Both the position numbers and the translations under genes were made by a program. A stretch of 64,000 nt of DNA from positions 10,912,001-10,976,000 of the forward strand of contig CAJFCV020000003.1 in the NCBI GenBank assembly GCA_904066235.2. The letters are read 5' to 3'. The notes below the pieces were generated by a model. The model was not told the origin of the DNA. It saw only the letters and a program-made list of their open reading frames with translations, and ran no database searches. Source of the stretch: Bursaphelenchus xylophilus (Eukaryota; Nematoda; Chromadorea; Rhabditida; Aphelenchoididae). How positions within the stretch are numbered: position 1 is the first letter of the stretch; each line of letters starts with the position of its first letter. Shown here one piece after another: positions 1,864-60,802 of the stretch.

Positions 1864-2451
1864 AGGAGAATTGTCCAAAGTACGATGCTCAGATTTTCTA
1901 AAAATTTTGCGGACAAGTCGAGCATGGATCTCATATCAATGCTTGAAAATTTTAGCTCGCGCTTTGCAGGCGCAGCTGAGATATTCAGCAAGCTTTGCGG
2001 CCGAGAGAGTACGCAAAAAGCGGAGAGCGGGCAGAGAAAAATCTGCTTTTTGGCCGTGTCTTTGCCAGTTCCGCGGAAAAAATGATTTTTTTGTGGGAGA
2101 AAGAATATCAGTCTGTCGGGAAAATAATGAGCGATTTGTCGCTGCGCCATTCGTGTCGCTGAACTGAAAAGCAATTTGGTTCTGTCGCGACACACTCCAT
2201 TTTTTCGATGCGACAGAGGGCTCATTATTTTCCCGACAGACTGATATTCTTTACGATAGAAGTAGATATGAAACTTGTCATATCAAGATTTGCCAAAAAA
2301 ATGCTATTCCTTGTCGATTTTTGGCTCTAAAGTCTTGATCGTTTCTCCAAAAACGCTACCTAGGAGTCTCACATATACCATAGAAGAAATCATTCTAAAG
2401 TTATGCCAAGCTTCATCAAAATCTTATCATCGCACGTGGAGCACTTCCCTT
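1864..2451. repeat. Repeat family 3 (CAGGGGAAGTACTCC type), copy a, interrupted
   Basis: It starts at CAGGAGAATTGTCC and ends at GGAGCACTTCCCTTG. Internally it carries the family landmarks CGATGCTCAGATTTTC, TTTAGCTCGCGCTTTGCAG and GAGAGAGTACGC-like motifs. The terminal logic (CARGGGAAGT) resembles the Tc5-like elements described below, so it may be a non-autonomous relative. A family 2 MITE is inserted within it. Confidence 0.55.
2109..2243. repeat. MITE family 2, copy b
   Basis: Both ends are intact (CAGTCTGTCGGGAAAATAAT and its complement). It lies inside the repeat family 3 copy at 1864-2451, so it is the younger insertion. Confidence 0.8.
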
Positions 2452-3241
2452 GTCCGAAAGATTATAAAAAAAAAGAAAAAATGTTTAATCCCTCACAAGC
2501 CACAAGCCTCGACGAAAACGGTAGCCAAGATTCGCAGCGTCACAAATAGCACACCTTCCGTTCGCTAATGCGGAGATTCGCTTAATCCACGCTCTTCAAA
2601 TCTATATCAACCAAATTTCACGATTACTATATGTATACTTAATCTCTCTCTCGGTGTTGCAAAAAAAGCCCCATGGAATCTGTGATGCACACCTGAACAC
2701 CCTGAAATGTCATCAGATTAGGCATCGCACTCAGCATGTGTAATTCAAGCCCATTATGTGTGCTCTGGATGTACATGTAATTTTCAAAGTCCAAAAGTGC
2801 AAAAAACGGCGAAAGCGGTAGGTCTTTTGCGATGAGTGATTGATACAGACATGTGTGATGAATATGAAAAGAAGAGCTTACAAGGAAAGAACTGTTATAA
2901 AAAATAAGGACAGAAGACACATGAGGCTCTCGGATTCTCATGAAATTTTTTTTACTAGTCGCACCATAAAGTCCGTAGAATTTACATATGTAGCGCGTTT
3001 GTGAGCACACCCCGAGACGATGCAGAAAAATTCTATGGACGCCTATAGGCTATAGTATTTCTCTCGCCGTAAAGTTTGTCGACGTAGCGTGAAATTCGTT
3101 TTTTTCGCCAATGTCGCGCAAGAAACCAAGCGTCGCTTCGCAAAAAAGTCTATATCGCTTGGATAAGAATGGGAAGTTGCGGCGTGAGAAAAGTGAAAAG
3201 AAGTACAGTGCAAAGTTGTCAGTACTTTATGGCGCAACAAT

Positions 3242-16801: not shown

Positions 16802-17234
16802 ATATAACTAAAAGACGATTTTTGGCTCGCTGCGTCAGCCGGGGACATTCAAAAAAATTTTTTTTGAGTTTTTTGGCCTAAAATGTTGGTATAGGTCACA
16901 AAAACACATTCCCAAAATTTTTTTGCCCAGTGATGCCCGGAAGGTAGAAATTTGCATACGGTTATAACCGTCCTTCTGAGCTCTGCTGTTGCCGTCGCAA
17001 TAAAGACAATTTGACGAAACCGACACCATATAGGTTTTGGTGGATGGCAAATTCAAAAATCGCAATTTCAAGTCAGTAGGATTACTGTAACATACAGTTT
17101 TCGACCTTCGGTCGATAAAAATCGACCGTATCTCCTTCAAATCAAAAATCCCACAAGATTTTATTGCAGATTTGGAATCAGCGTAAAATTCTGGTCTAGG
17201 GGCATGCAATTTGCATCCTTGATTCCGTGGCAGA

Positions 17235-17310
17235 TAAATCATGGCGCAGTGGGTTTGGACGAAAACTAGTAATCTGACGACCCTGGTTCGATCCCCGCTG
17301 GAGACAATTA
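17235..17310 (+). ncRNA. tRNA-like segment (Thr-AGT-like), left arm
   Basis: An A-box match TGGCGCAGTGG (17242-17252) is followed by the loop-like CTAGTAA (anticodon AGT if read as tRNA) and a near-perfect B-box GGTTCGATCCC (17285-17295). The acceptor stem does not pair well. I read it as a tRNA-derived sequence rather than a working gene. Confidence 0.5.
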
Positions 17311-18134
17311 TTGTAAAAAAGATGGAAATGACATTTAATGGAATAATGAGGGTTATATGAGCAACGCTGAGTATTTTTAGACATCAATGGAACATGAGTT
17401 TGAGGTTAGAACAGGGTTTATATTATTTTACTCTCGGAATCCGTGAAAAATAAAACTGCTTCAAACGGGCTGAAATTGATAACACCTATTCTAGGATTAA
17501 TTCTTAGAAACTTTTGTGTTAACTTTTTTTTGTTAGATTACTGTAACGTGAATTACGGTAACAAAAAGCTCGGCCTCCTTAAAGGCGATTGCTTCAAAAT
17601 TTTCGCATAAAATTAAAAATTTTTTTTGGCTATATTATTCAAACTGCAGAAAGCGGGCATGCCTCATATTTAAAATGCAATTCTAACTCATTTTCAGTGT
17701 GAATTAATCTCATCATCCATTGGTGATATTGCGTTAGATAACTCGGGTATTTCAAAACGTACGGCCATAAACGAACTATTAATGCGCAAACCCACTCGTT
17801 CTTAACTATTCCTACAATCTTCGTGATATTCCGATGGCCCTGCGCCTTGTGGTATGAAAAAACAAAATTGGGTTTTATGTTACCGTAATCCAAGTTACAG
17901 TAATCTAACAAAAAAAAGTTAACACAAAAGTTTCTAAGAATTAATCCTAGAATAGGTGTTATCAATTTCAGCCCGTTTGAAGCAGTTTTATTTTTCACGG
18001 ATTCCGAGACTAAAATAATATAAACCCTGTTCTAACCTCAAACTCATGTTCCATTGATGTCTAAAAATACTCAGCGTTGCTCATATAACCCTCATAATTC
18101 CATTAAATGTCATTTCCATCTTTTTTACAATAAT

Positions 18135-18207
18135 TGTCTCCAGCGGGGATCGAACCAGGGTCGTCAGATTACTAGTTTTCGTCCAAACCCACTGCGCCAT
18201 GATTTAT
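18135..18207 (-). ncRNA. tRNA-like segment, right arm (mirror copy)
   Basis: Reverse-complement counterpart of the segment at 17235-17310 with the same A- and B-box matches. Being in opposite arms, the two face each other. Confidence 0.5.
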
Positions 18208-18573
18208 CTGCCACGGAATCAAGGATGCAAATTGCATGCCCCTAGACCAGAATTTTACGCTGATTCCAAATCTGCAATAAAATCTTGTGGGATTTTTGAT
18301 TTGAAGGAGATACGGTCGATTTTTATCGACCGAAGGTCGAAAACTGTATGTTACAGTAATCCTACTGACTTGAAATTGCGATTTTTGAATTTGCCATCCA
18401 CCAAAACATATATGGTGTCGGTTTCGTCAAATTGTCTTTATTGCGACGGCAACAGCAGAGCTCAGAAGGACGGTTAAAACCGTATGCAAATTTCTACCTT
18501 CCGGGCATCACTGGGCAAAAAAATTTTGGGAATGTGTTTTAGTGACCTATACCAACATTTTAGGCCAGAAAAC

Positions 18574-21500
18574 TCAAAAAAAAATTTTTTGAATGTCCGG
18601 CCCCTCGTATTGGCTGACGCAGCGAGCCAAAAATCGTCTTCTAAAAACAAACTCTCTATCACTTCTCCGCTCTATATACACTTGCCTAAAGACCTCTTCG
18701 AACTCAAAGTCGCGCAGCAGATCAAACTTTTTCTTCAGTTCTCCGTTCAGACTCTGGAATCTTGACTTCAATAGATCCGTCGATGGCTCTTCCTTCTTTC
18801 CACATACCATCGCCTAAAATAGAATTGAAAAATGGAATTCTTAACTCACATGATTCATGGAGATCTGAAAAATCTGGCACCATCTGAAATACTGTTTGTA
18901 GAGCTGTTTCAGCTCGTTGAAGACTTTATCATCAAACCCATGTTCAGTGACAGCATTCATGGCGATGATTCCGTCTGAAAAAGTGCAAATAAACAGTCAA
19001 ATCTCTGTACAGTTTTTCAAGTTCCCCAAAAAATGTTCGTTATACAAAGGTTTTGTTTTATAAAGACTTACTTTGGCATAAAATCGACTTTGCTTACCTC
19101 CGAAATTGTTCTTTATAGAGAGGAAATGTAGTGCGGAGGTTCGTTTTACAAAGCCTTCACAGTAAAAAGAATAAAAAATAGACAAAGCCAAATTGAATCC
19201 AGACAATTATCAATCAAAAAAACCCAAAAATTTCCCAACATACCATCCGACAGAACGTCGTAATTGGCCTTGACAGTGTCCTCTTCCCAGTACGAGTTCA
19301 CCGGACACAGTGACTTGTAATCCTCGGAGATGTCGTTGTAGCAGAGATCGAGCAAAATAAAGTCGTATTTCAGGCCTGAAAATGAATCATCAAAGTCGTT
19401 TTACAGCAAAACCTCTCACCATTTCTGCTGGCATTGCGAATGAAGACCGTGCTATCCTCGTAATGGACTTGGATTTGTCGGCCCTCCTCGAAACCCAGCC
19501 ATTTCTTGCCAATGTAGACGGTGGCCGGCTCCAACTCCACGCCAGTAATATGAATCTAACAATAAATAGAAAAGGAAGTGCTCCAAGTGCGACGCTCAGA
19601 TTTTCTTTAAATTTTGCACACACGTCGGGTATGGACTAAGTATCAATTCCTGAAAGTTTTAGCTCGCGCTTTGCGGGCGCCGCCGAGATATCAAACGATT
19701 TTTGCCGCCGAGAGAGCACGCTAAACGTGGAGAGCGGTCAGAGAGAAAAGCGCTTTTTGGCCATAACTTTGGCAGTTTCGTGCGGAAAAATTTGATTTTT
19801 TGTAGAAACATTAGCCTTTACGGCTGAAATAGGCATGAAACTTTTCGTGCCGAAATTCGGCAAAAGTTCCTAAAATTTCGCCGACTTTTGATCTAAAAAT
19901 CTCGGTTGTTGCTGCGAAGCGCGAGCTAGGACTCTCGCATATTTCTTAGAAAAAATTATTCTAAATTTATGCCAAGTTTCATCAAAATCTGAGCGTCGCA
20001 TTTGGAGTGCTTCCCCTGTAAATAGAAAAGAAAGTGTCTCAAGTACGACGCTCATATTCTCTTTAAATTTTGCGTACAGTTCGAACATAGGGCACATATC
20101 AATCCCTGAAAATTTTAGCTCTTGTTTTGCAGGTGCAGCTGAGATATTGAACGATCTTTTTCGGAGAGAGAGTACGCGAAATACGGAGTGCGCAGAGATA
20201 AAAAACACTTTTTAGCCGTATCCTTGCCAGTGCCGCATGGAAAAGACTGTTTTTTTGTGGAAACTTTACCCTATACGATAGAAATAGATGTGTAAACTTT
20301 CGTCCAGAAATTCGTCAAAAAAGTGTCGATTTTTTCCAAAAAAAAATTCATCTAAATTTGCGCCAATTTTCATCAAAATCTGAGCCTCACACTTGGAGTA
20401 TTTCCCCTAAAAATTTTAAAATAAAAAACCCCCCAAAAAGCTACCATTGGATTAATACTAGCCAAAGCCATCGCCATGGTCCCAAAGCCCAACCCGGAGT
20501 TGTAGATTCGCACCGGCTTGGTTGTGTTGTGCTCCAGACTTCCAAAAACGAATGGGACAGACAAGAGGAATTGAACATATTGCGTGACGGAAGTTTCGGT
20601 CAGGAATTTGCCTGAAATATGAAAAATGAAAAAGTTTGAAAAAGAGAAGTTTGCCAAGTCCACCGCTAGGACTTGGCCAAAATTTTGCATACGGACTGGG
20701 TTCGGGCCACTCCAAATAAATTTTAAATGGCTCAAAATTTACCATTTTTATCCAAAACCGTCGTGGCCAATGAAAAACCCGTCACTTCCGGATGCACTGA
20801 GATTAATGCCGATCTGAAACATGCAAAAAATCGATAAAAAAACTTTACAATGACAAATAATTCCATAGTTTAAAAAGCCAATTTTAGGCTTAAAATACTC
20901 TCCAAAATTCTATGACAAAACTTTTCCCATCTTACGTAAAAGTTCCTTATTCTGGCCACGACTTATAACTTTGCGGAAACTGGACAGAATTGGCCCAAAT
21001 TTGGCGTGCAGGCTCAATTCAGCGTTGTCAATGCCCGGACAGTGGCTTTAGCTAGTTTAGGTACCTTCTTTTTTACGTACCACCTTACCCTTTAAAAACG
21101 GCTGCAGCCTGCCATTTTACACTTTATACGATGAGACATGTCCAGAACCAAACTTATTGCCTCCGTATAGAGCTAAATGAGCCGTCATAGCCTTCGTAGG
21201 TACCCTTAAAGTAATAGAGCTATTATAGTAATTAAGTTCCAGCTAAGTCGAGGCCTTTCTTCCTAACTTTAGGTCCCAAGCTTGGGCGCAGTTCGAAGAG
21301 TACCTTTGTTGAGGCCAGAATAAGGAACTTGTTCCCCATCTTACACTTGTACAGAGATTTGACAATGCTAAAATCGTCCTTACCCATCATCACGCCGGAC
21401 GCAAAACACCACCCAACAGTCGTGCGGAAAGCAGAACATATCCAACAACGAGTACTCCGTGGGCCTCTTGAACATCCTCTTGATTCGATCAGTATGCCGA

Positions 21501-21631: not shown

Positions 21632-22661
21632 CTGTAAGTGATGTACATAAAATAATTTGGTTAGGAAAAAACAGAGAAAATGATGATTTTTTGAAGAAAA
21701 AGGAGGAAAATGGAACTCTGTAGGGGATTTGGCGCTACGACATTTCGGGTCAGGGACAACTCGGGTCGCGACAACTCGGGTCAACGACAACTCGGGTCAA
21801 CGACACTTCGGGTCAACGACACCTCGGGTCAACGACATTTCGGGTCAACGATACCGTTTAATATTTTCGCTTCGGGACTTGGAAAAAAGAATTTTTTGGT
21901 GAATTTAAAAAATTTTTCAAATGTTTTCGCTTCGGGACTTGGAAAAAAAGGATTTTTTGTGAAATTTGAATAAAATTTGAAATTTTTTCGCTTCGGGACT
22001 TGGAAAAAAAGGATTTTTTGTGAAATTTGAATAAAATTTGAAATGTTTTCGCTTCGGGACTTTTAACAAAAGGATTTTTTGTGAAAATTGAAAAAAATTT
22101 GAAAGGTTTTCGAGCTGACTGAGTATGAACTGACTGAATATGAAAACTGGGTTTCTGTTACCTTACTGCCTTTAGGGATTCTTTTTGAAAATTTTTCGAC
22201 TTATAGCACTTTTAGACGTTAATGGTGTTGTTTTGGTGCCTAGTACTGCTTAAAAACACATTTTTAACACTTGGTACTAAATAGTACTACCTGGTACTAT
22301 ATAGTACGAGGTGCAAATTTGGCCGTAAGGCGGTAATGGCGTTGGTTTGGTGCTTAGTAGAACCCAAAAACACGTTTTTACACTTGGTACTATATAGTAC
22401 CAACTGGTACTGTTTTGTGAGAAGTGAAAATTTGGTCATGAGGCAGTAATGGTGATGGTTTGGTGCTTACAAGGGAAGTCACTTTTTTCGCAGATCGATC
22501 CATACTGGTGACCTAGTGGACTGTGAAGGCCTCAGGCTGTGTAAGAAGAATCTGGCGTCCAAAAGTGTTTACGGGCCCTGAGGGCAGAGTTATGGCTCAT
22601 CAAAGTTCGCGCAAAAAAGGTCCCGAAAAGACCCTCCAAAAAAACGGGATCAGAGAAGTGA

Positions 22662-22734
22662 GCTTCGGTAGCAGAGTGGTTCGCAGATTTTTCTTTTGTC
22701 TGGAAGGGCTAGGGTTCGATTCCTCTTCCCGGCA
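22662..22734 (+). ncRNA. tRNA-like segment, left arm of Tc5-like element
   Basis: Perfect Pol III A-box TAGCAGAGTGG (22669-22679) and B-box GGTTCGATTCC (22713-22723), 33 bases apart. The 3' end CCCGGCA resembles an acceptor end, but acceptor and T stems pair only partly, so it is best called tRNA-derived. Confidence 0.5.
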
Positions 22735-22750
22735 ATAACTAAAAATAATA

Positions 22751-23143
22751 TTGTATTATAAGAGTAGCGTAAGTTACAAAAAAATTGTTTTGAAACATTT
22801 TTTGAAAAATTTTATTATCCTGTCGTTAAAATTTGGGGAAGTCGTTGTGAGCTTGGACACAGTGAGGGATGCGAGGGCATTTTTCCGCCGAGGATCGCAT
22901 TCAATTTCTGGAATAATGCGGCGATTACGGTGGATGAAGACGCCGTATCATTGGAGAAAACTGCGGGAACTTTGGCGTAAAGGTAGGACGGGGATTCTCA
23001 ATATGTATCTCTCTGATGTTTTAGAAGACGCCCTTGGTGATCATGATATCATGCTGAAGCGTTTGAGTCAAACGCTTGCTGTCTGGACAGATGATAAATT
23101 TAGCGACGATATGAACAAAATCGTCATTTTTTTAACGACTTAA
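22751..23143 (+). CDS. Foldback-element protein fragment, DNA-binding-like
   Basis: The open frame ends in TAA at 23143. The part from about residue 30 (VVVSLDTVRDARAFF, then YHWRKLRELWRKGRTG) aligns by eye with the protein coded at 49148-49577 (FVSLDQIRAVKRYW, YYWRKMTDLWKKGK). It is rich in arginine and lysine with helix-turn-helix-like spacing. By analogy with Tc4/Tc5/pogo-type transposases this could be an N-terminal DNA-binding region, an inference only. The first about 28 residues are low-complexity and the true start is uncertain. No DDE catalytic region follows. Confidence 0.5.
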   Translation: MYYKSSVSYKKIVLKHFLKNFIILSLKFGEVVVSLDTVRDARAFFRRGSHSISGIMRRLRWMKTPYHWRKLRELWRKGRTGILNMYLSDVLEDALGDHDIMLKRLSQTLAVWTDDKFSDDMNKIVIFLTT

Positions 23144-23218
23144 TAATAATTTTAAAAAAAATTTTTTAAATATTTTTTTTGTTACTTACGCTACTTTTAC
23201 AATATTATTTTTATTTAT

Positions 23219-23291
23219 TGCCGGGAAGAGGAATCGAACCCTAGCCCTTCCAGACAAAAGAAAAATCTGCGAACCACTCTGCTACCGAAGC
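23219..23291 (-). ncRNA. tRNA-like segment, right arm of Tc5-like element
   Basis: Mirror copy of the segment at 22662-22734 with both promoter boxes intact. Confidence 0.5.
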
Positions 23292-23924
23292 TCACTTCTC
23301 TGATCCCGTTTTTTTGGAGGGTCTTTTCGGAACCTTTTTTGCGCGAACTTTTATGAGCCATAACTCTGCCCTCAGGACCCGTAAACACTTTTGGACGCCA
23401 GATTCTTCTTACACAGCCTGAGGCCTTCACTGTCCACTAGGTCACCAGTATGGATCGATCTGCGAAAAAAGTGACTTCCCTTGTTAGTAGAGCCCAAAAA
23501 CACGTGGTACTATATAGTACCAGGTGGTACCATTGGTTTTAGACAAAATTTTAGTGCTGCCGGCACCACAGTTAATATTCAGTCAGACACCCTTTTTTCT
23601 ACTTCCGATGCGAAAACATTTCAAAATTTTGTTGAATTTTCCAAAAAATCTTTTTTTTCCCAGTCCCGAAGCGAAAACACTTCAAATTTTTTTCAAATTT
23701 CACAAAAAATCCTTTTTTTTCCAACTCCCGAAACGAAAACATTTCAAAAATTTCTCAAATTCACCAAAAAATTCTTTTTTCACAGTCCCGAAGCGAAAAT
23801 ATTAAACGGTATCGTTGACCCGAAATGTCGTTGACCCGAAGTGTCGTTGACCCGAGTTGTCGTTGACCCGAGTTGTCGTTGACCCGAGTTGTCGCGACCC
23901 GAGTTGTCCCTGACCCGAAATGTC

Positions 23925-24037
23925 GGGACGCGGGGGATTTTTGGCAAAAAAGTGCTTAAAAATGGATTTTGATGATTTCGTCTAATGGCATTGCCAACCA
24001 AAACTGTTGAAAACCCTTTCTCATAGACGCTGATTGT
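23925..24037 (-). other. Possible upstream exon of the methyltransferase-like gene
   Basis: A tttcacag acceptor precedes a coding-like stretch (TISVYEKGFSTVLVGNAI, then NPFLSTFLPKIP) on the same strand as the gene at 18.6-21.6 kb. The stretch runs directly into the palindrome at 23924 with no good donor site left, so splicing to the next exon cannot be shown. It could equally be an unrelated exon or chance. Confidence 0.3.
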
Positions 24038-30775: not shown

Positions 30776-31366
30776 CAAGGAAAGTACTTTTATGGGGGCT
30801 CCTACTTTTCGACGGGACATACCTCAAAAAATCAGAAAAAATGTGCTGATCAAGGATATATAAATCTTAGCTGCCCATTTTAGGTTTTTAGGGGCGAAAA
30901 TGCCCAAAAACTCGCTTAATTTCCCTACAAAAGGGCAGGCATTCGAAACGATAAAAAGCGCAGTCGGTCTCTTCCTTCGGAAGAGAGCGATGTGGCCGAG
31001 TGGCTAGTGCCGTAGTCTGGGAATCAAGAGGGGGACGCCGCACGGGTTCGGTTTCCCTTTTGGACTGAAGCAACTTTTTTTGAAGTTGAAGGTCGGAAAA
31101 ATAAATTTTTGGGCCAAGACTGATTTATTACGTCCTAGAAACTCAATAAACATCATTTTAAGCCGAAATAAAAATTGTAAACCTGTGAAAAATTAAGCGA
31201 AAAGAGGTTTATATAGGACTTTAAACCAACTTGCGATGGACTTTTCACCCCTAAAAACCTAAAATGGGCAGCTAAGATTTATATATCCTTGATCAGCACA
31301 TTTTTTCTGATTTTTTGAGATATGTCCCGTCAAAAAGTAGGAGCCCCCATAAAAGTACTTTCCTTG
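30776..31366. mobile_element. Foldback element with central tRNA-like sequence (P1)
   Basis: CAAGGAAAGTACTTTTATGG at the left is mirrored at the right, and the palindrome continues outward as AAAAATCTGA / TCAGATTTTT. Arms of about 130 bases flank a central tRNA-like sequence. The ends match the Tc5-like CAAGGRAAGT type. The TNA duplication cannot be tested because the flanks are themselves inverted. Confidence 0.6.
30986..31063 (+). ncRNA. tRNA-like segment of element P1
   Basis: A-box TGGCCGAGTGG (30993-31003) is intact, while the B-box (GGTTCGGTTTC, 31045-31055) has two changes. A hairpin CTCTTCC-TTC-GGAAGAG lies just upstream, as in element P2. Non-functional as a tRNA by appearance. Confidence 0.4.
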
Positions 31367-32578: not shown

Positions 32579-33140
32579 GCTTGGAGGTTATTGAGGGGAT
32601 TTGAAGGGGTTTTCATGGGATATAAATGGATTTTGAGAGGGTTGGGATATTGTTTTAGGTGAGATGAAAAAATTTTTGGAAATTTTTGAAGGTTTATATT
32701 TTTTCTTGTACAGGGTGTACCAATTTGGTGGCCCGATTTGAATTGGCTATAACTTCTTTAATTTTGGGCCAAATTTTAAAATTCTTTTTTTCCCTGAATC
32801 CTCAGACATGCCCATTTTGTTTAATACCAAATATGTGGCAGGAGTACAGAAATCTCGCCATCTTCGTCATCTTTGTTTAGGGCCAACCCTTTTCCCCAAC
32901 TTTGCGGATTTTCAAAATTTTCATATCTGTGCCCTCCGGGTTTCACTCCTTAGGAGCGGATTTGCTTTGGGTTTTTTAATTCCAAACTATTCTACACGAA
33001 ATTCTAAACCTTATGAACCTAGGTTTGCCACAACTATCTATTTCGTTCACAAGATAGATCTTTTGTTCTTCACGACGAAGATGGCGAGATTTCTGTACTC
33101 CTGCCACATATTTGGTATTAAACAAAATGGAGATGTCTGA

Positions 33141-33710
33141 CAAGGAAAGTACTTCTATGGGGTGTGGAATTACCGGTCAAGATATATATCAAAAAATTCG
33201 CAAAAATTTTCTGATTCAGAATATATAAAAATTAGCTGCCTAATTTTGGTCTATTAACGAGTTTTATCAATAAATGTATTTCTCGAGGAAAAAATCTGCG
33301 GCAACAAAAGCGCGCTCGGTCTCTTCCTTCGGAAGAGAGCGGTGTGGCCGAGTGGTTAGAGCGCTAGATTGGGAATCCGAAGGGAACGGGTTCGATTCCT
33401 TTTGCCACACTAGAACCCATTTTTTACATTGGAACTACTTTTAAGGTGTAGTTGTAATCCAATTTGATATTTTAAGGCTTGTCAAGGCCTCAAAATTTAT
33501 TTTAGCACAAAACAAAATTTTTTTATTGGTAAAAACACGGTCAAAAAGACACTTGCATTGTGTCGCGAGAAAACTTCTGAGGACAAAAACATGTCATCAG
33601 ACCAAAATTAGGCAGCTAATTTTTATATATTCTGAAACAGAAAATTTTTGCGAATTTTTTGATATATATCTCGACCGGTAATTCCACACCCCATAGAAGT
33701 ACTTTCCTTG
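33141..33710. mobile_element. Foldback element with central tRNA-like sequence (P2), TGA duplication
   Basis: CAAGGAAAGTACTTCTATGG at the left is mirrored at the right. TGA flanks both ends inside C-TGA...TGA-G, the Tc4/Tc5-type CTNAG target. The arms are about 110 bases, with one tRNA-like segment in the loop. No coding region. Confidence 0.7.
33342..33411 (+). ncRNA. tRNA-like segment of element P2 with a perfect acceptor stem
   Basis: GTGTGGC (33342-33348) pairs perfectly with GCCACAC (33404-33410). The A-box TGGCCGAGTGG and B-box GGTTCGATTCC are both perfect, and the loop TTGGGAA would give anticodon GGG. The anticodon and T stems each have mismatches. It is the best preserved of the tRNA-like segments and could still be transcribed by Pol III. 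A hairpin CTCTTCC-TTC-GGAAGAG lies immediately upstream. Confidence 0.55.
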
Positions 33711-34117
33711 TGAGGATTCAGGGAAAAAAAGAATTTTAAAATTTGGCCCAAAATTATAGAAGTTATAGCCAATTCAAATCGGGCCACCAAATTGGTACAC
33801 CCTGTATATTTTTTTGTGCCGAAAAATTGCATTTTATCTTTTATACAGCAAGCAGCATATTTAAAATCTTGATTTTTCGCAATAAACTCAACAGACATCT
33901 CAATTTACGGCTGTTTCGCACAGTGCGTGTTGCCGGTTTCAGTCCACCGCGCTGTTACGGCGCAGGCTCGTCATAACAGGAGTTTACTATTACAGCAAAC
34001 TCATCGCAACCTGAACTCCTCGGAAAAGAAGAGAGGAGAATCAGTCGTATTGGCCCCCGTTTTTGGGAAGGGGACCGAGCGCTCCGATCTCAGGAAAAGG
34101 GTGCGATGAGGGTGTTG

Positions 34118-39235: not shown

Positions 39236-40122
39236 TGAGATCTGTTTTGGCCAAGAATTGTCTCTTCTGACAACTGACGATCTTTGTTATAGACAAGTAT
39301 CATAGTAAAAAGTTCATTGTTCGGAGGTTCAACTGTAACCAACAAATTACCTCAACTCTCGGCGGAGTCATCCTTTCGATTGACGGTTTGTGCGATCGCA
39401 TCGCAAAATCCCCCTCCTTGGCCAACGCCTTGAACAACGACTCCTCTTGCGCTAACAAATTGTCTGGCGTATCGAATTCCGCAACTGCTCCATTATCAAT
39501 AACAAGCACTCGATCCACATCACTCAGCCAATTCAGCCGATGAGCGATTGTCAAAACGGTGCAGTCGTTGAAATGGTCGCTAAAAAAGTCGTTGTAAAAG
39601 ATGTGTAAAATCTTACCGTAACGTCCGATGGACCATTTGATCTGTCTCCAAATCTACCGACGCCGATGCTTCGTCCAGAATCAGGATTTTCGGCTTGCGC
39701 AACAACGCTCGGGCCAAGCAAATCAGCTGCCGTTGGCCGACGGAGATGTTGCTTCCGCCTTCGGTCATTTCCGTGTCCAGACCACTGGGCAAACTCTGAA
39801 CGAATTGGCCCATTCCGGCGAATTCCAACGCCTCCCACAAGAAGTCTTCGTCGAAGCGCTTCGAGGGGTCCAGGTTCATTCTCAACGTTCCGGAAAAGAG
39901 GACCGGGTCTTGCGGGACAATGGTCAGACGTCGACGGAGAGTGGGCAACGGAACAGTCGACAGATCGACATTATCGATGAGAACTCGGCCGGATTTCAGC
40001 TCGAGCAGGCGGAACAGAGCCAGAGCAAAGCTGCTTTTACCTGGAAATGCATGACTATAGATTTTATGCTGGGAAAAGGGTACTTGGATCTTTTTTTGGC
40101 TGATTTTGCGGAAGGTTGACTG

Positions 40123-40369
40123 TACAGTGAAGGACCAGATCCGTGGCAAAAAACTTATCATTTTGCGTCCGGGAAGTATCAAAAATGTGGCAAAAGGCCC
40201 CCAATTTGCTCGGATTTCGGAAGCGAGCCCGCTCTTGTCGTGAGGGAAAGGGCACACCCTTCAAAACGGAGTTTTTTAGTTGGAGAGAGAGGCATTTTGC
40301 TACATTTTTTGATACTTCCCGGATTAAAAATGGAACGTTTTTTGCCACTGGATCAGTTCCGCCACTGTA
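40123..40369. repeat. MITE family 1, copy g
   Basis: In the intron between the exon 15 and 16 copies of the ABC fragment. Its counterpart at 44875-45123 lies at the same position in the intact gene, so it predates the duplication. Confidence 0.8.
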
Positions 40370-40781
40370 ATGGCACAAAAACTTACCGGATCCAGTCCTC
40401 CCAACAATCGCAATCTTCTCTTTGGCCTTGATGTTGATGCTGATATTGTTCAGAATCGTCTGACTTTCCGATCGATACGAAAACGACGCCTCTTCGAACG
40501 TGATCTGCCCATTCGTTGGCCAGCCGCTCAAGGGCTCAATAGACAGACCAAGAGGTTATTCGGAGTCCTGAAAATTAATAAAGTCTTCGAAATTACCATA
40601 AATGGCGTCTATTAACGTTGTGGTGCTTAGAAATCTCGCTTACATCTTGCATTTCCTCTGCATATTCGGTGACGCGCTCGACGGACACAATGTTCGTCTC
40701 CAGCTCACTGGACATGCGAACGGTCGCATCGTGGGATGTTCGATCAGACAGACACTGATCTAGCTCTAAGAAAACGCTCCA

Positions 40782-40950
40782 CACGGCAACCCGAAGTTTT
40801 TCCTGGCTCCTTTCGACACTTCGCCCAATTTTCCGACCGAAAAATATTTTTCTCGGAATTATTTTATTTCTTTTGTCAATTTTGACACTTCGTTTGGACG
40901 AAACTCAAAAGTGGGCGGGAAAGATTTTTCTTCTATTTCGGGTTGCCGTG
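40782..40950. mobile_element. 169-base TIR element, CTCCA target duplication
   Basis: CACGGCAACCCGAAG at the left is mirrored by TTCGGGTTGCCGTG, with CTCCA on both sides (40777-40781 and 40951-40955). The left duplication unit carries the empty site (ACGCTCC followed directly by CGCTCTTTTT), so insertion followed duplication or the unit escaped it. It lies about 40 bases upstream of the BTB copy 3 start codon and may alter its promoter or 5' UTR. Confidence 0.75.
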
Positions 40951-40986
40951 CTCCAGCTCTTTTTATTATTTCTAGTTTTTGTCCAA

Positions 40987-42131
40987 ATGGCCTTGCAAAT
41001 GGAAAGACAATTAGGACGGTTGGAGTACCAAATTGAAAGGTTGAAATGTGGGTAATGGGAAGGGAATGATATTGAGGGTTATTTTGCTACTAACTTAAAT
41101 CATATTATAACTTATCTTTGAATTAGAAACAGGCGGTTAACGCTCGTTTGTTTTTAGACAAGGTTTCGAAAGTTGCTCCATTTGAAGACGAACTTTTCAA
41201 CGATCCGAGGGTTAGCAATCTAAAGATCAATGTGGGAACAACAACGTTCTATGTAAGTACAAAAATTCTTTGATTTTTTACTAGCACTTTTTAGGTTTGC
41301 AAACACCAGCTGGCCAAGAAATCGCCGGTTTTCAAATCCATGTTTCTCTCGGGCTTGAAAGAAGCCGAAGAAGGTGTCCTGGAACTGCACGACGATCCCG
41401 TTGCTGTAGAAGCCATGTTGAAACACGTTTACATGAATTCGAAAATCAATGATCTTCAGTTGGCAATGAATGTGCTACCCTTGGCGCACCGATACGATTT
41501 GAGTGACCTTATGGTAAGTGGATTGCTTTGGGAATTTGTTGGAAAGTAGTGTGTTTCAAGAAATTTTGTACAAATTTTTTGCTTGTATCTTTGTTTTCGC
41601 AGACACAAGAAAAAAATGCATATACTTAAAACAGGGTGCATTATCTTTGGTCAATTTTTCCAGAACGAATGCGAATTGGCGATCTTGAATGGGATCTCTG
41701 ACGAAAGCGCTGAGCAGACGCTTGATTTGGCCAGAAAGTTTGACCTGAAGTTGGTTTTTGCAAAAAGCTGTCAGCATCTTCTACTTAACGCCGATCTGGG
41801 AAGTGCTACTAACGCCGATCTGGGAAGTGAGACTAGTTGTCCCCATGTTGCTACAGTAAGTTCCGGAAACAGGTGGCCCAACCGGAGCTCTCCTTGCGAA
41901 ACCTGCGGTGATGGCAAAGCTGCCTATGCGTGCTTGGTGTGCCAGAGAGCATTCTGCGGTGGTTATACCTACGGTCATGCAATGGAGCACTATGAAGACA
42001 CCAAACATTCGATGGTGATTAGGTTGTCCGACCTCTTTGTTTGGTGCTATAGTTGTGCATCGACAGTTAATAGTCGCAAGCTTGACGAGACAAAGGATTA
42101 TATTTTTCAGGTTCAGTTCCGCAGCCTTTAG
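40987..42131 (+). CDS. BTB plus ZnF-UBP protein (BTB copy 3)
   Basis: Four exons (40987-41047, 41158-41252, 41295-41513, 41664-42131) give about 280 residues. The layout is as in copy 2: helix 1-25, BTB about 32-126, BACK-like about 126-165, then a more complete UBP-type zinc finger (about 190-255). Visible in order: CPHVA, CETCGDGKAAYACLVC, AFCGGYTYGHAMEHYEDTKH, IRLSDLFVWCYSC. These match the Cys/His ligands and the WCY ubiquitin-tail pocket of HDAC6/USP5-type fingers. An internal duplication NADLGSATNADLGSET lies before the finger, and a 25-residue tail follows it. Exon 1 ends one base differently from copy 2 (AAAT|gtggg versus AAAG|gtggg), changing Glu to Tyr at the junction. Likely a Cul3 adaptor reading free ubiquitin C-termini (inference). 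Confidence 0.87.
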
Positions 42132-42140
42132 TTAGGCCGT

Positions 42141-42550
42141 GTCATAGAAAATTTCGATCTCGGGTTTTTGCCTTTATGTAACCACCATCGTCCTAAAAAC
42201 CCATTGGCAAAACAGTTTTGCCTACTTCCGCCGTTAACGCAGTTATTTTTACAATTTATTGTTTATACAGTAGTCCACAATAATTCAGTAATGACCATGC
42301 AGATATCATGAAATTGTGCATACTGATGTTTTCGAACTCGTAGATTTCAAAAAAAGTGGTTTTGACTCATTAGGATTACTGTAACATACCAAACTGCCGA
42401 TTCGGCCGCCAAAAATCGGCCGTAAAAGGTTTGTTTCTGAAAAATAACTATGTCAATGGCGGAAGTAGGCAAAACTGTTTTGCCAATAGGTTTTTAGGAA
42501 GATGGCGGTCATATTAAGGCAAAAAACCCGAGATCGAAATTTTCTATGTC
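42141..42550. mobile_element. 410-base palindromic element 10 bases after the BTB copy 3 stop
   Basis: GTCATAGAAAATTTCGATC is mirrored at the right. The arms of about 110 bases include TTTGCCTACTTCCGCC and its mirror. The centre holds GATTACTGTAACATACC and CGGCCGCCAAAAATCGGCCG, sequence types also present in the arms of the two YTAA palindromes, suggesting kinship. It probably supplies the 3' UTR of BTB copy 3. Confidence 0.65.
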
Positions 42551-42660
42551 AAGGGCTGATACACCCACTCAGAAATTGTGTTTTATTATATATGTAATCC
42601 ATTTAACGTTTCATGTAATTTGAGTAAAATCTGTTTCCTGCATAAGTCGGCTCGGTATGA

Positions 42661-43401
42661 CTAGACATGGCTCGTCGGCCAGCCCGGGCCGAAAATCTCA
42701 GCCCGTCGGCCTGAAGGGTTCCGGCAGGCCCGGCCCGTTTTAAATTTGCTTCGGCCCGGCCCGGGCCGGCCCATTGAAAGGAAAGTCTCCCCAAGTCTAA
42801 CTCCTTATGACCAAATTTTTTTTTATCATCAATGGGAAAATAAATGCTCTGCTCCTCCAACCGATTCACAGGCAATTCCCCTAGATAATTATGGGACAAT
42901 CTCCCAATGTATTCACGCAAATAACCCACACGAATAAATGCCAATACTATTTATCCACGCAATTCCCAACCACAATCAAAACCAATACAAGCCAATATCA
43001 AAGAGTAATATGTATCTGATCCACACGGAACTCTGACGGCCAAACGCGCGCTCAGATTCCTCCGTTCCTCCTTCTATCGTCTTCACATTCCAACCAACTC
43101 CCACCACCGATCCTCCTTCCGTCCACGTTCCTCTCTCACATTAGGCTGCTCGTTATCGTTGCGGGACCAAATGAGGGCCCAGATGCGGCTGGCTCCACAC
43201 ATCATGTAAATGGAAAAATACTGTGTTCCATAGCTATCTAAAAACAAAAATACCTTTAAAAAAACCAATTGTGTGTTGACATTACGTTTATTTTCATTAT
43301 CAAACCCAATTTTCGCTTCGAGATTCTGGATTTTAAATATTCCGGGCCGGGCCGAAATTTTGGCCCGGCCCAGGCCGGCCCGGCCCGGGAGCCATGTCTA
43401 G
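42661..43401. mobile_element. GGCCGG-rich TIR element, GTATGA target duplication (G2)
   Basis: CTAGACATGGCTCGTCGGCC at the left and CCATGTCTAG at the right are inverted ends. GTATGA lies directly outside both. It is in the opposite orientation to G1, with which it shares GGCCGG-rich flanks and the internal CTCCCCAAGTCTA segment. About 270 extra bases in its middle are specific to this copy. Confidence 0.7.
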
Positions 43402-43457
43402 GTATGAATATATTCATAGACCGTTTTTTTTAAAACTCAGTTGAGTTGAAATAAACC

Positions 43458-43463
43458 TTTATT
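43458..43463 (-). terminator. Poly(A) signal of the ABC transporter
   Basis: AATAAA on the minus strand, 61 bases beyond the TAG stop codon. The same signal is kept in the broken left copy. Confidence 0.6.
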
Positions 43464-43523
43464 AAAAATCAATACTGTGCTGTAAAGTAACCCGTATTTG
43501 AACAACAACAAACGCCCCAAGGG

Positions 43524-60802
<17,279 letters not shown>

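What the first reader, a model, noticed from the sequence alone, without database searches (positions are those of the whole stretch)
22470..23483. Tc4/Tc5-like foldback element carrying tRNA-like genes in both arms around a coding centre
The sequence shows CAAGGGAAGT ends, a TTA duplication in a CTNAG target, two mirror tRNA-like segments with perfect A- and B-boxes, and a central basic ORF. The same design recurs at 48495-50105 with a different tRNA type, and without an ORF at 30776-31366 and 33141-33710. Independent tRNA types in elements sharing ends suggest repeated capture, or a role for Pol III promoters in the element's life cycle. Tc4/Tc5 in C. elegans are known foldbacks with TNA duplications; tRNA cargo is not part of their usual description as far as I know.
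Basis: partly seen in the sequence, partly recalled or inferred. Interest (0 to 1): 0.85.

Follow-up and report, generated by a model that had tools for sequence, protein, structure and literature searches.

The report
tRNA promoters inside Tc5-type transposon ends
A family of cut-and-paste DNA transposons in a nematode (most likely the pine wood nematode) carries, at a fixed place inside its ends, a tRNA-like RNA polymerase III promoter whose two boxes stayed similar while the surrounding sequence changed, which suggests that the transposon uses a host factor that normally serves tRNA genes.

Summary
22470-23483 is a foldback element with CAAGGGAAGT ends, a TTA duplication, and in each arm a tRNA-like segment with A and B boxes. 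It is one of a large group: 236 end-plus-inward-B-box arms genome-wide, 0 for the reversed-letters control. Two transposons that still encode Tc5-type transposase sequence carry such a module in both terminal inverted repeats, 254 and 245 bp from the end. The tRNA-like part is thus built into the ends of a Tc5-lineage transposon, not cargo. Between nine families the A and B boxes are the best-conserved internal stretches (identity 0.69 and 0.85; other windows 0.42 on average, 0.59 at most). With the collinear arms this favours one old acquisition over repeated capture. The segments score poorly as tRNAs, and 6 of 9 have TTTT between the boxes. I favour a TFIIIC binding site over a working Pol III gene; no binding data were available. 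The central ORFs resemble the transposase N-terminus. Host: probably Bursaphelenchus xylophilus. C. elegans has TFIIIC-bound 'tRNA pseudogene' repeats (CeRep3, PMC6950938); a Tc5 origin for them is untested. Against: boxes are not better conserved within the finding's own family.

The parts
22470..23483 (.). Tc5-type foldback element (family F1), TTA target duplication
22662..22733 (+). tRNA-like segment, left arm: A box TAGCAGAGTGG from 22669, B box GGTTCGATTCC at 22713-22723
23220..23291 (-). tRNA-like segment, right arm, mirror copy pointing inward
22739..23143 (+). 134-aa stop-to-stop frame, similar to the Tc5-type transposase N-terminal region (VSLD motif); frame shifted in L009 (= L001), open over residues 14-131 in L016
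48495..50105 (.). foldback element of family F3, TGA duplication in CTGAG
48687..48770 (+). tRNA-like segment, left arm of F3 element
49831..49913 (-). tRNA-like segment, right arm of F3 element
49128..49583 (-). 151-aa frame, transposase N-terminus-like; open in the four distinct sequences (five elements) held in full
33141..33710 (+). short element, family F4, single tRNA-like segment between 129-nt arms, TGA duplication
33338..33410 (+). tRNA-like segment of F4 element; only tRNA match in the window at the lax setting, 22.4 bits, below cut-off
30776..31366 (+). short element, family F5 (first 117 bp 97% identical to the TIR of the transposase-bearing element on contig C7); flanks TGA / TCA
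30986..31066 (+). tRNA-like segment of F5 element, A box TGGCCGAGTGG, B box imperfect

Best explanation
These are non-autonomous members of a Tc5-lineage DNA transposon group in a nematode, probably Bursaphelenchus xylophilus. An ancestor had a tRNA-like Pol III type 2 promoter (A box + B box, pointing inward) about 200-270 bp from each end, within its long terminal inverted repeats; the two transposase-bearing elements examined keep such a module there. Shown: position, orientation, copy number, presence in transposase-bearing members, similarity of the boxes between families. Inferred: the boxes were kept because the host factor TFIIIC binds them at the transposon ends, mostly without a finished Pol III transcript, and this helps the element, for instance by keeping the ends in open chromatin for transposase or as a barrier against heterochromatin. 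Neither binding nor benefit is shown. Likelihood of the anatomical statement about 0.85; of TFIIIC binding as the reason for conservation about 0.5.
For: Module in both TIRs of two transposase-bearing elements: C2 2847065-2849706 (TIR about 349 bp, 98%, B box at 254) and C7:722-2967 (TIR 306 bp, 99.3%, B box at 245), with Transp_Tc5_C 49.2 and 57.7 bits, DDE_1 26.1 bits in the first, HTH_Tnp_Tc5 23.6 bits in the second. Genome: 116+120 end-plus-inward-B-box arms, reversed-letters control 0+0. Among 110 arms held, 47 forward B boxes, all at 239-255; 20 reverse ones, none at 239-269. Sample chosen by ends alone: 17 pairs, 12 with TNA duplication, 11 of these 12 with a B box. Nine family representatives: A box 0.69, B box 0.85 identity, 140 other windows mean 0.42, maximum 0.59. 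TTTT between the boxes in 6 of 9 representatives, 0 of 10 distinct host tRNAs (the 10 come from the best-scoring tRNA loci), and weak tRNA fold speak for binding rather than transcript. In C. elegans 504 TFIIIC sites without Pol III mostly carry both boxes, 214 of them in CeRep3 repeats (PMC6950938, passages).
Against: Within family F1 the boxes are not better conserved than the rest of the arm (of 239 windows, 142 are as conserved as the A box or more, 87 as the B box or more), and 9 of 23 left arms lack a strict B box. The nine representatives were picked by me, the A boxes were chosen by hand, and the alignment may favour shared motifs. A boxes of F2 and F3b are weak; B boxes of F5 and C7 are imperfect (7/9, 8/9). 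No ChIP or RNA data; no C. elegans or other nematode genome was at hand. The opposite-orientation genome control did not complete. F4, F5 and C7 have no TTTT between boxes and have T runs of 6-10 behind the B box, so Pol III transcripts remain possible.
Confidence: 0.6

Rival explanations
1. The module is a working Pol III promoter: short RNAs start inside each TIR and run inward, for instance giving double-stranded RNA or a regulatory RNA for the element.
For: A and B boxes at tRNA-like spacing (44-56 bp); T runs of 6-10 within 60 bp behind the B box in F1b, F3b, F4, F5 and C7. Pol III-made small RNAs from A/B-box loci exist in C. elegans (mir-1829, PMC12157501, a preprint, passages).
Against: TTTT between the boxes in 6 of 9 representatives would be expected to stop Pol III early (termination rule recalled); AT-rich arms give T runs by chance; T runs of only 2-4 behind the box in F1, F2, F3 and C2.
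Confidence: 0.25
2. Repeated capture: different families picked up different tRNA genes independently at the same place.
For: tRNA-like sequences differ strongly between families, A-to-B distance 44-56 bp.
Against: Similar distance and the same orientation in the nine; arms collinear; residual similarity of tRNA-like parts between some families (F4-F1b 75% over 59 nt, F1-F3 67% over 112 nt); a TTCTTTTG stretch shared by F1, F3 and F3b (seen by eye). No tree was made.
Confidence: 0.08
3. The boxes are subterminal binding sites for the transposase that resemble a tRNA promoter by accident.
For: Subterminal transposase sites are common in Tc elements (recalled); position is nearly fixed relative to the end.
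Against: Both A-like and B-like motifs, in tRNA order, with spacing that varies between families as in tRNA genes; GGTTCG is invariant in 9 of 9 representatives although the two transposases are only about 32-35% identical.
Confidence: 0.1
4. Ordinary hitch-hiking: a tRNA pseudogene caught once in an ancestral TIR and carried along without function.
For: No excess conservation within family F1; tRNA fold weak.
Against: Neutral drift would not be expected to leave the A and B boxes as the best-conserved internal windows between nine families.
Confidence: 0.17

Closest known systems
Tc5 (C. elegans) and Tc5-type transposases of nematodes
   Same: CAAGGG-type ends and TNA duplication (Tc5 description recalled); transposase with HTH_Tnp_Tc5, DDE_1 and Transp_Tc5_C domains; named relatives are C. 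elegans F30F8.4 (36%) and a Nippostrongylus protein (34%); the best of 6 hits, 37%, is unnamed
   Different: A tRNA-like promoter module in both TIRs; whether C. elegans Tc5 has it could not be tested here
CeRep3 repeats / extra-TFIIIC sites of C. elegans (PMC6950938)
   Same: Interspersed repeats, called putative tRNA pseudogenes, at sites with A and B boxes bound by TFIIIC without Pol III
   Different: The main text has no word beginning 'transpos'; CeRep3 sequence not available here. That CeRep3 is an inverted-repeat unit is recalled, not read
nev-tRNAs (nematode-specific tRNAs with long V-arm; PMC4033280)
   Same: Nematode-specific, odd tRNA-like genes
   Different: A nev-tRNA was charged in tests; the segments here score poorly as tRNAs; no link of nev-tRNAs to transposons in the passages read
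tRNA-derived SINEs (description recalled)
   Same: Internal A/B boxes in mobile DNA
   Different: Here TIRs, TNA duplication and a DDE-type transposase; the promoter points inward from both ends
DNA transposons targeting small RNA genes (PMC3706591; title and start of abstract in the listing only; the family name Dada is recalled)
   Same: DNA transposons linked to small RNA genes
   Different: Those insert into such genes; here the tRNA-like part lies inside the transposon

Membership tests
Tc5-type DNA transposons | Three-base TNA target duplication | tested here: met
   41 of 48 end pairings in the loci held, many of them fetched because of their boxes; one of the 41 is a chance pairing across two window elements. 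Misses: five ACCCC-type pairs (0 of 5), L029 and window 30776. CTNAG target in 23 of 48
Tc5-type DNA transposons | Transposase with Tc5 DNA-binding, DDE and Tc5 C-terminal domains | tested here: met
   Met by relatives: L089 pieces Transp_Tc5_C 49.2, DDE_1 26.1, HTH_Tnp_Tc5 18.6 bits (below 22.2); L092 57.7, HTH 23.6, DDE_1 17.5 (below 22). Not met by the 22470-type and 48495-type frames themselves: no Pfam match; only N-terminus-like frames
Tc5-type DNA transposons | CAAGGG-like ends and long TIRs (recalled) | tested here: met
   CAAGGRAA ends, TIRs 306-349 bp in the two transposase-bearing elements
tRNA genes | Cloverleaf score above cut-off | tested here: not met
   lax search of window and 16 loci: of the modules only F4-type ones are listed, 20.7-28.1 bits against 29; a 26.8-bit match in L031 lies outside its element
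Pol III type 2 promoter | A box and B box in order with tRNA-like spacing | tested here: met
   A-to-B 44-56 bp in nine representatives, A boxes chosen by hand; A box weak in F2 and F3b
extra-TFIIIC sites | TFIIIC bound, Pol III absent | not testable with these tools
   needs ChIP data
CeRep3 | Sequence homology with C. elegans CeRep3 | not testable with these tools
SINE | No TIR, 3' tail, variable-length duplication (recalled) | tested here: not met
   TIRs and 3-bp TNA duplication

The most novel reading that the evidence does not exclude
A whole lineage of nematode Tc5-type transposons carries TFIIIC landing sites in its ends and has seeded nematode chromosomes with Pol III-free TFIIIC sites; the C. 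elegans CeRep3 / extra-TFIIIC sites near heterochromatin borders would then be relics of such transposon ends, i.e. a mobile source of TFIIIC boundary elements.
Probability: 0.3. Interest if true: 0.85.

Novelty: new variant of a known kind. Interest (0 to 1): 0.66.

Why it matters
None of the listings of my ten paper searches (openly licensed papers only) shows a DNA transposon with a host-type Pol III promoter kept in its terminal repeats. If TFIIIC binds there, transposons would spread TFIIIC sites, and the origin of C. elegans TFIIIC sites with both boxes but no polymerase would become directly testable by overlaying published ChIP peaks on Tc5-type ends. It also suggests that tRNA pseudogene counts and gene models in this genome may include transposon ends.

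Tried and rejected
tRNA gene reading: ARAGORN and Rfam at its cut-offs negative on the window; lax search weak. Coding role of the F1 centre: no Pfam match; lengths of near-full copies differ by numbers not divisible by three; frame shifted in L009 (= L001), open over residues 14-131 in L016. F3 151-aa frame: only 4 distinct sequences, too alike for a selection test (pN/pS 0.83 from 1-3 changes a pair). Conservation within F1 as proof of selection: not found (two of the 23 arms, L099 and L106, are damaged and were kept in the alignment). ACCCC-type CAAGGGAAGT repeats: 19 arms, best B-box match 8/9 once and 7/9 or less otherwise, none at the fixed place; no matching duplication in 5 of 5 pairs; set apart as another repeat. 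Relatives of the C7 transposase in viral contigs: none. Transposase-like sequence in 12 further loci (F2, F1b, F3b, F4) and the window elements 30776 and 33141: none at E 0.01.

Full report
WHAT IS THERE. The window lies at G000:C3:10912001-10976000 of a 78.25-Mb, 8-contig genome. The organism is most likely Bursaphelenchus xylophilus: the only match (E up to 0.001, 21 candidates) of the 151-aa frame at 49128-49583 is a protein of that species, 99% identical over 93%. The element 22470-23483 has CAAGGGAAGT ends, a TTA duplication, 301-nt arms 96% complementary, a tRNA-like segment in each arm, and a 134-aa frame in the centre. CAAGGGAAGT occurs 841+873 times in the genome, the reversed pattern 80+88 times.

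A SAMPLE NOT CHOSEN BY tRNA CONTENT. From the places listed (all on contig C1) I picked by eye 17 pairs of facing ends and 3 unpaired ends and fetched them. Of the 17 pairs, 12 have a TNA duplication, and 11 of these 12 have a B box at 239-255 bp from an end, pointing inward, in one or both arms. L020's box is one base off the strict form, and L017, a 233-bp short form, has none. The 5 pairs without duplication (L010, L015, L022, L024, L025) belong to a repeat whose ends continue ACCCC or similar and carry no B box at the fixed place. So the module is nearly general among true elements of this sample, but not among all CAAGGGAAGT strings; how many of the 1714 belong to which repeat was not counted.

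GENOME COUNT. End plus inward B box at 239-269 bp: 116 on one strand and 120 on the other; reversed-letters control 0 and 0 (only the first part of the places is listed). The control with the B box turned round did not complete. On 110 arms held, many of them fetched because of their boxes, 47 forward B boxes all lie at 239-255 and 20 reverse ones at 218 or 308-311. The 308-311 group is what the far arm of the short F4 elements should give (inference). A stricter A-to-B pattern is found 71 times, reversed control 0.

THE TRANSPOSASE-BEARING MEMBERS. The only DDE_1 match reported for the genome (2 candidates scored, counts are lower bounds) lies in an element on C2 with CAAGGGAATGG ends, a TTA duplication and TIRs of about 349 bp, 98% identical, each with A and B boxes, B at 254 bp. 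Its transposase is seen in two adjoining open pieces of 339 and 210 aa with a stop between them, perhaps in an intron; they match HTH_Tnp_Tc5 (below cut-off), DDE_1 and Transp_Tc5_C. A second element, C7:722-2967, has a 449-aa stop-to-stop frame with Tc5 domains, TIRs of 306 bp at 99.3%, and another tRNA-like sequence at 245 bp; against its near relative L093 it lacks a stretch of the N-terminal region (read off). L093, L094 and L095 are deleted relatives with the same TIR type and module. The first 117 bp of the window element at 30776 are 97% identical to the C7 TIR. The tRNA-like module therefore belongs to the TIR of these transposons.

THE CENTRES. The 48495-type centre is open over 151 aa in four distinct sequences from five elements. 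Five copies elsewhere in the genome are weak matches to the N-terminal part of the C2 transposase (residues 13-149, 26% identity, E 0.05-0.13). The 22470 centre matches residues 94-188 (26% identity, E 2e-5 for a single comparison) and shares the VSLD motif. I read both as remnants or truncated forms of a transposase; the 22470 frame is shifted in L009 (= L001).

CONSERVATION. Nine representatives (F1 22470, F1b L018, F2 L013, F3 48495, F3b L023, F4 33141, F5 30776, and the two transposase-bearing elements) were aligned. GGTTCG is the same in 9 of 9. Mean pairwise identity is 0.91 over the terminal 10 nt, 0.69 in the A box, 0.85 in the B box; 140 other 11-nt windows average 0.42 with a maximum of 0.59. 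With a subset of six more distant members: A 0.59, B 0.87, other windows at most 0.51. B-box match against 500 shuffles of each arm: at most 5 shuffles as good in 7 of 9, 24 in C7, 275 in F5. Against this, 23 F1 left arms (20 fetched by their centres held) show no special conservation of the boxes, and 14 of 23 keep a strict B box. That is what decay of copies after insertion would give, but it is no evidence for selection.

NOT A GOOD tRNA. Acceptor-stem pairs are 2-5 of 7 in the nine, against a mean of 6.8 in 10 distinct host tRNAs (taken from the best-scoring tRNA loci) and 2.8 for slid controls; T-stem pairs 3-5 of 5 against 5.0. TTTT lies between the boxes in 6 of 9 and in 0 of 10 host tRNAs. 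So the DNA boxes were kept better than the RNA fold, which points to a protein-binding role of the DNA.

READING. I take the module to be a TFIIIC site kept in the TIR of a Tc5 lineage. The nearest known thing is in C. elegans: 504 TFIIIC sites without Pol III, 90% with A box and 87% with B box, 214 of them in CeRep3 repeats called putative tRNA pseudogenes (PMC6950938; abstract, outline and passages seen). That paper's main text has no word beginning 'transpos'. Whether CeRep3 is a Tc5-type end is untested. The genome paper of B. xylophilus (PMC3164644, passages) gives about 22% repeats, of which around 1.3% had transposon features; elements such as these may sit in the rest (inference). A review of nematode chromosomes (PMC9071541, passages) names Tc5 once and has no word beginning 'tRNA' or 'TFIIIC'.

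CERTAINTY. Anatomy and membership in the Tc5 lineage: strong. One old acquisition rather than repeated capture: likely, no tree made. TFIIIC binding: inferred. Benefit to the element: conjecture.

Noticed in passing
window 21738-23925, 32709-33806, 47884-50761: Three of the four elements lie inside larger inverted repeats (for 48495: 480-nt arms, 99%); the 30776 element has 12-bp mirror-image flanks. Either these transposons like palindromes or nested foldbacks are common here.
   Followed up: partly
window 16843-18598: Inverted repeat with 725-nt arms, 99% complementary, 306 nt apart; not identified.
   Followed up: no
L096 1259-1573 and protein P0007: The database protein P0007 of B. xylophilus ends in letters that match the antisense translation of the F3 tRNA-like segment, so a gene model seems to run into a transposon end.
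   Followed up: partly
L099: An F1 copy with a hairpin-like insertion between its A and B boxes.
   Followed up: no
L013 285-357; L027 near 50-120: A real tRNA gene (70.7 bits) ends 43 bp before an element end, and a tRNA-Asp-like sequence (by eye) lies about 250 bp from another end. CAAGGRAAGT ends also occur in 3 of 30 tRNA loci (L080, L084, L088); no test of excess was made.
   Followed up: partly
window 39613-47277 and 51284-56214, minus strand: Exon-like frames resembling an ABC transporter of MRP type, with a repeated pair of exon-like frames at 39.6-40.5 and 43.9-45.4 kb; the 48495 element seems to lie in an intron. By eye only.
   Followed up: no
CAAGGGAAGTACCCC-type repeats, e.g. L022, L025, window 2443-2452: A repeat sharing the ten end bases but lacking the module and, in 5 of 5 pairs, a matching duplication.
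   Followed up: partly
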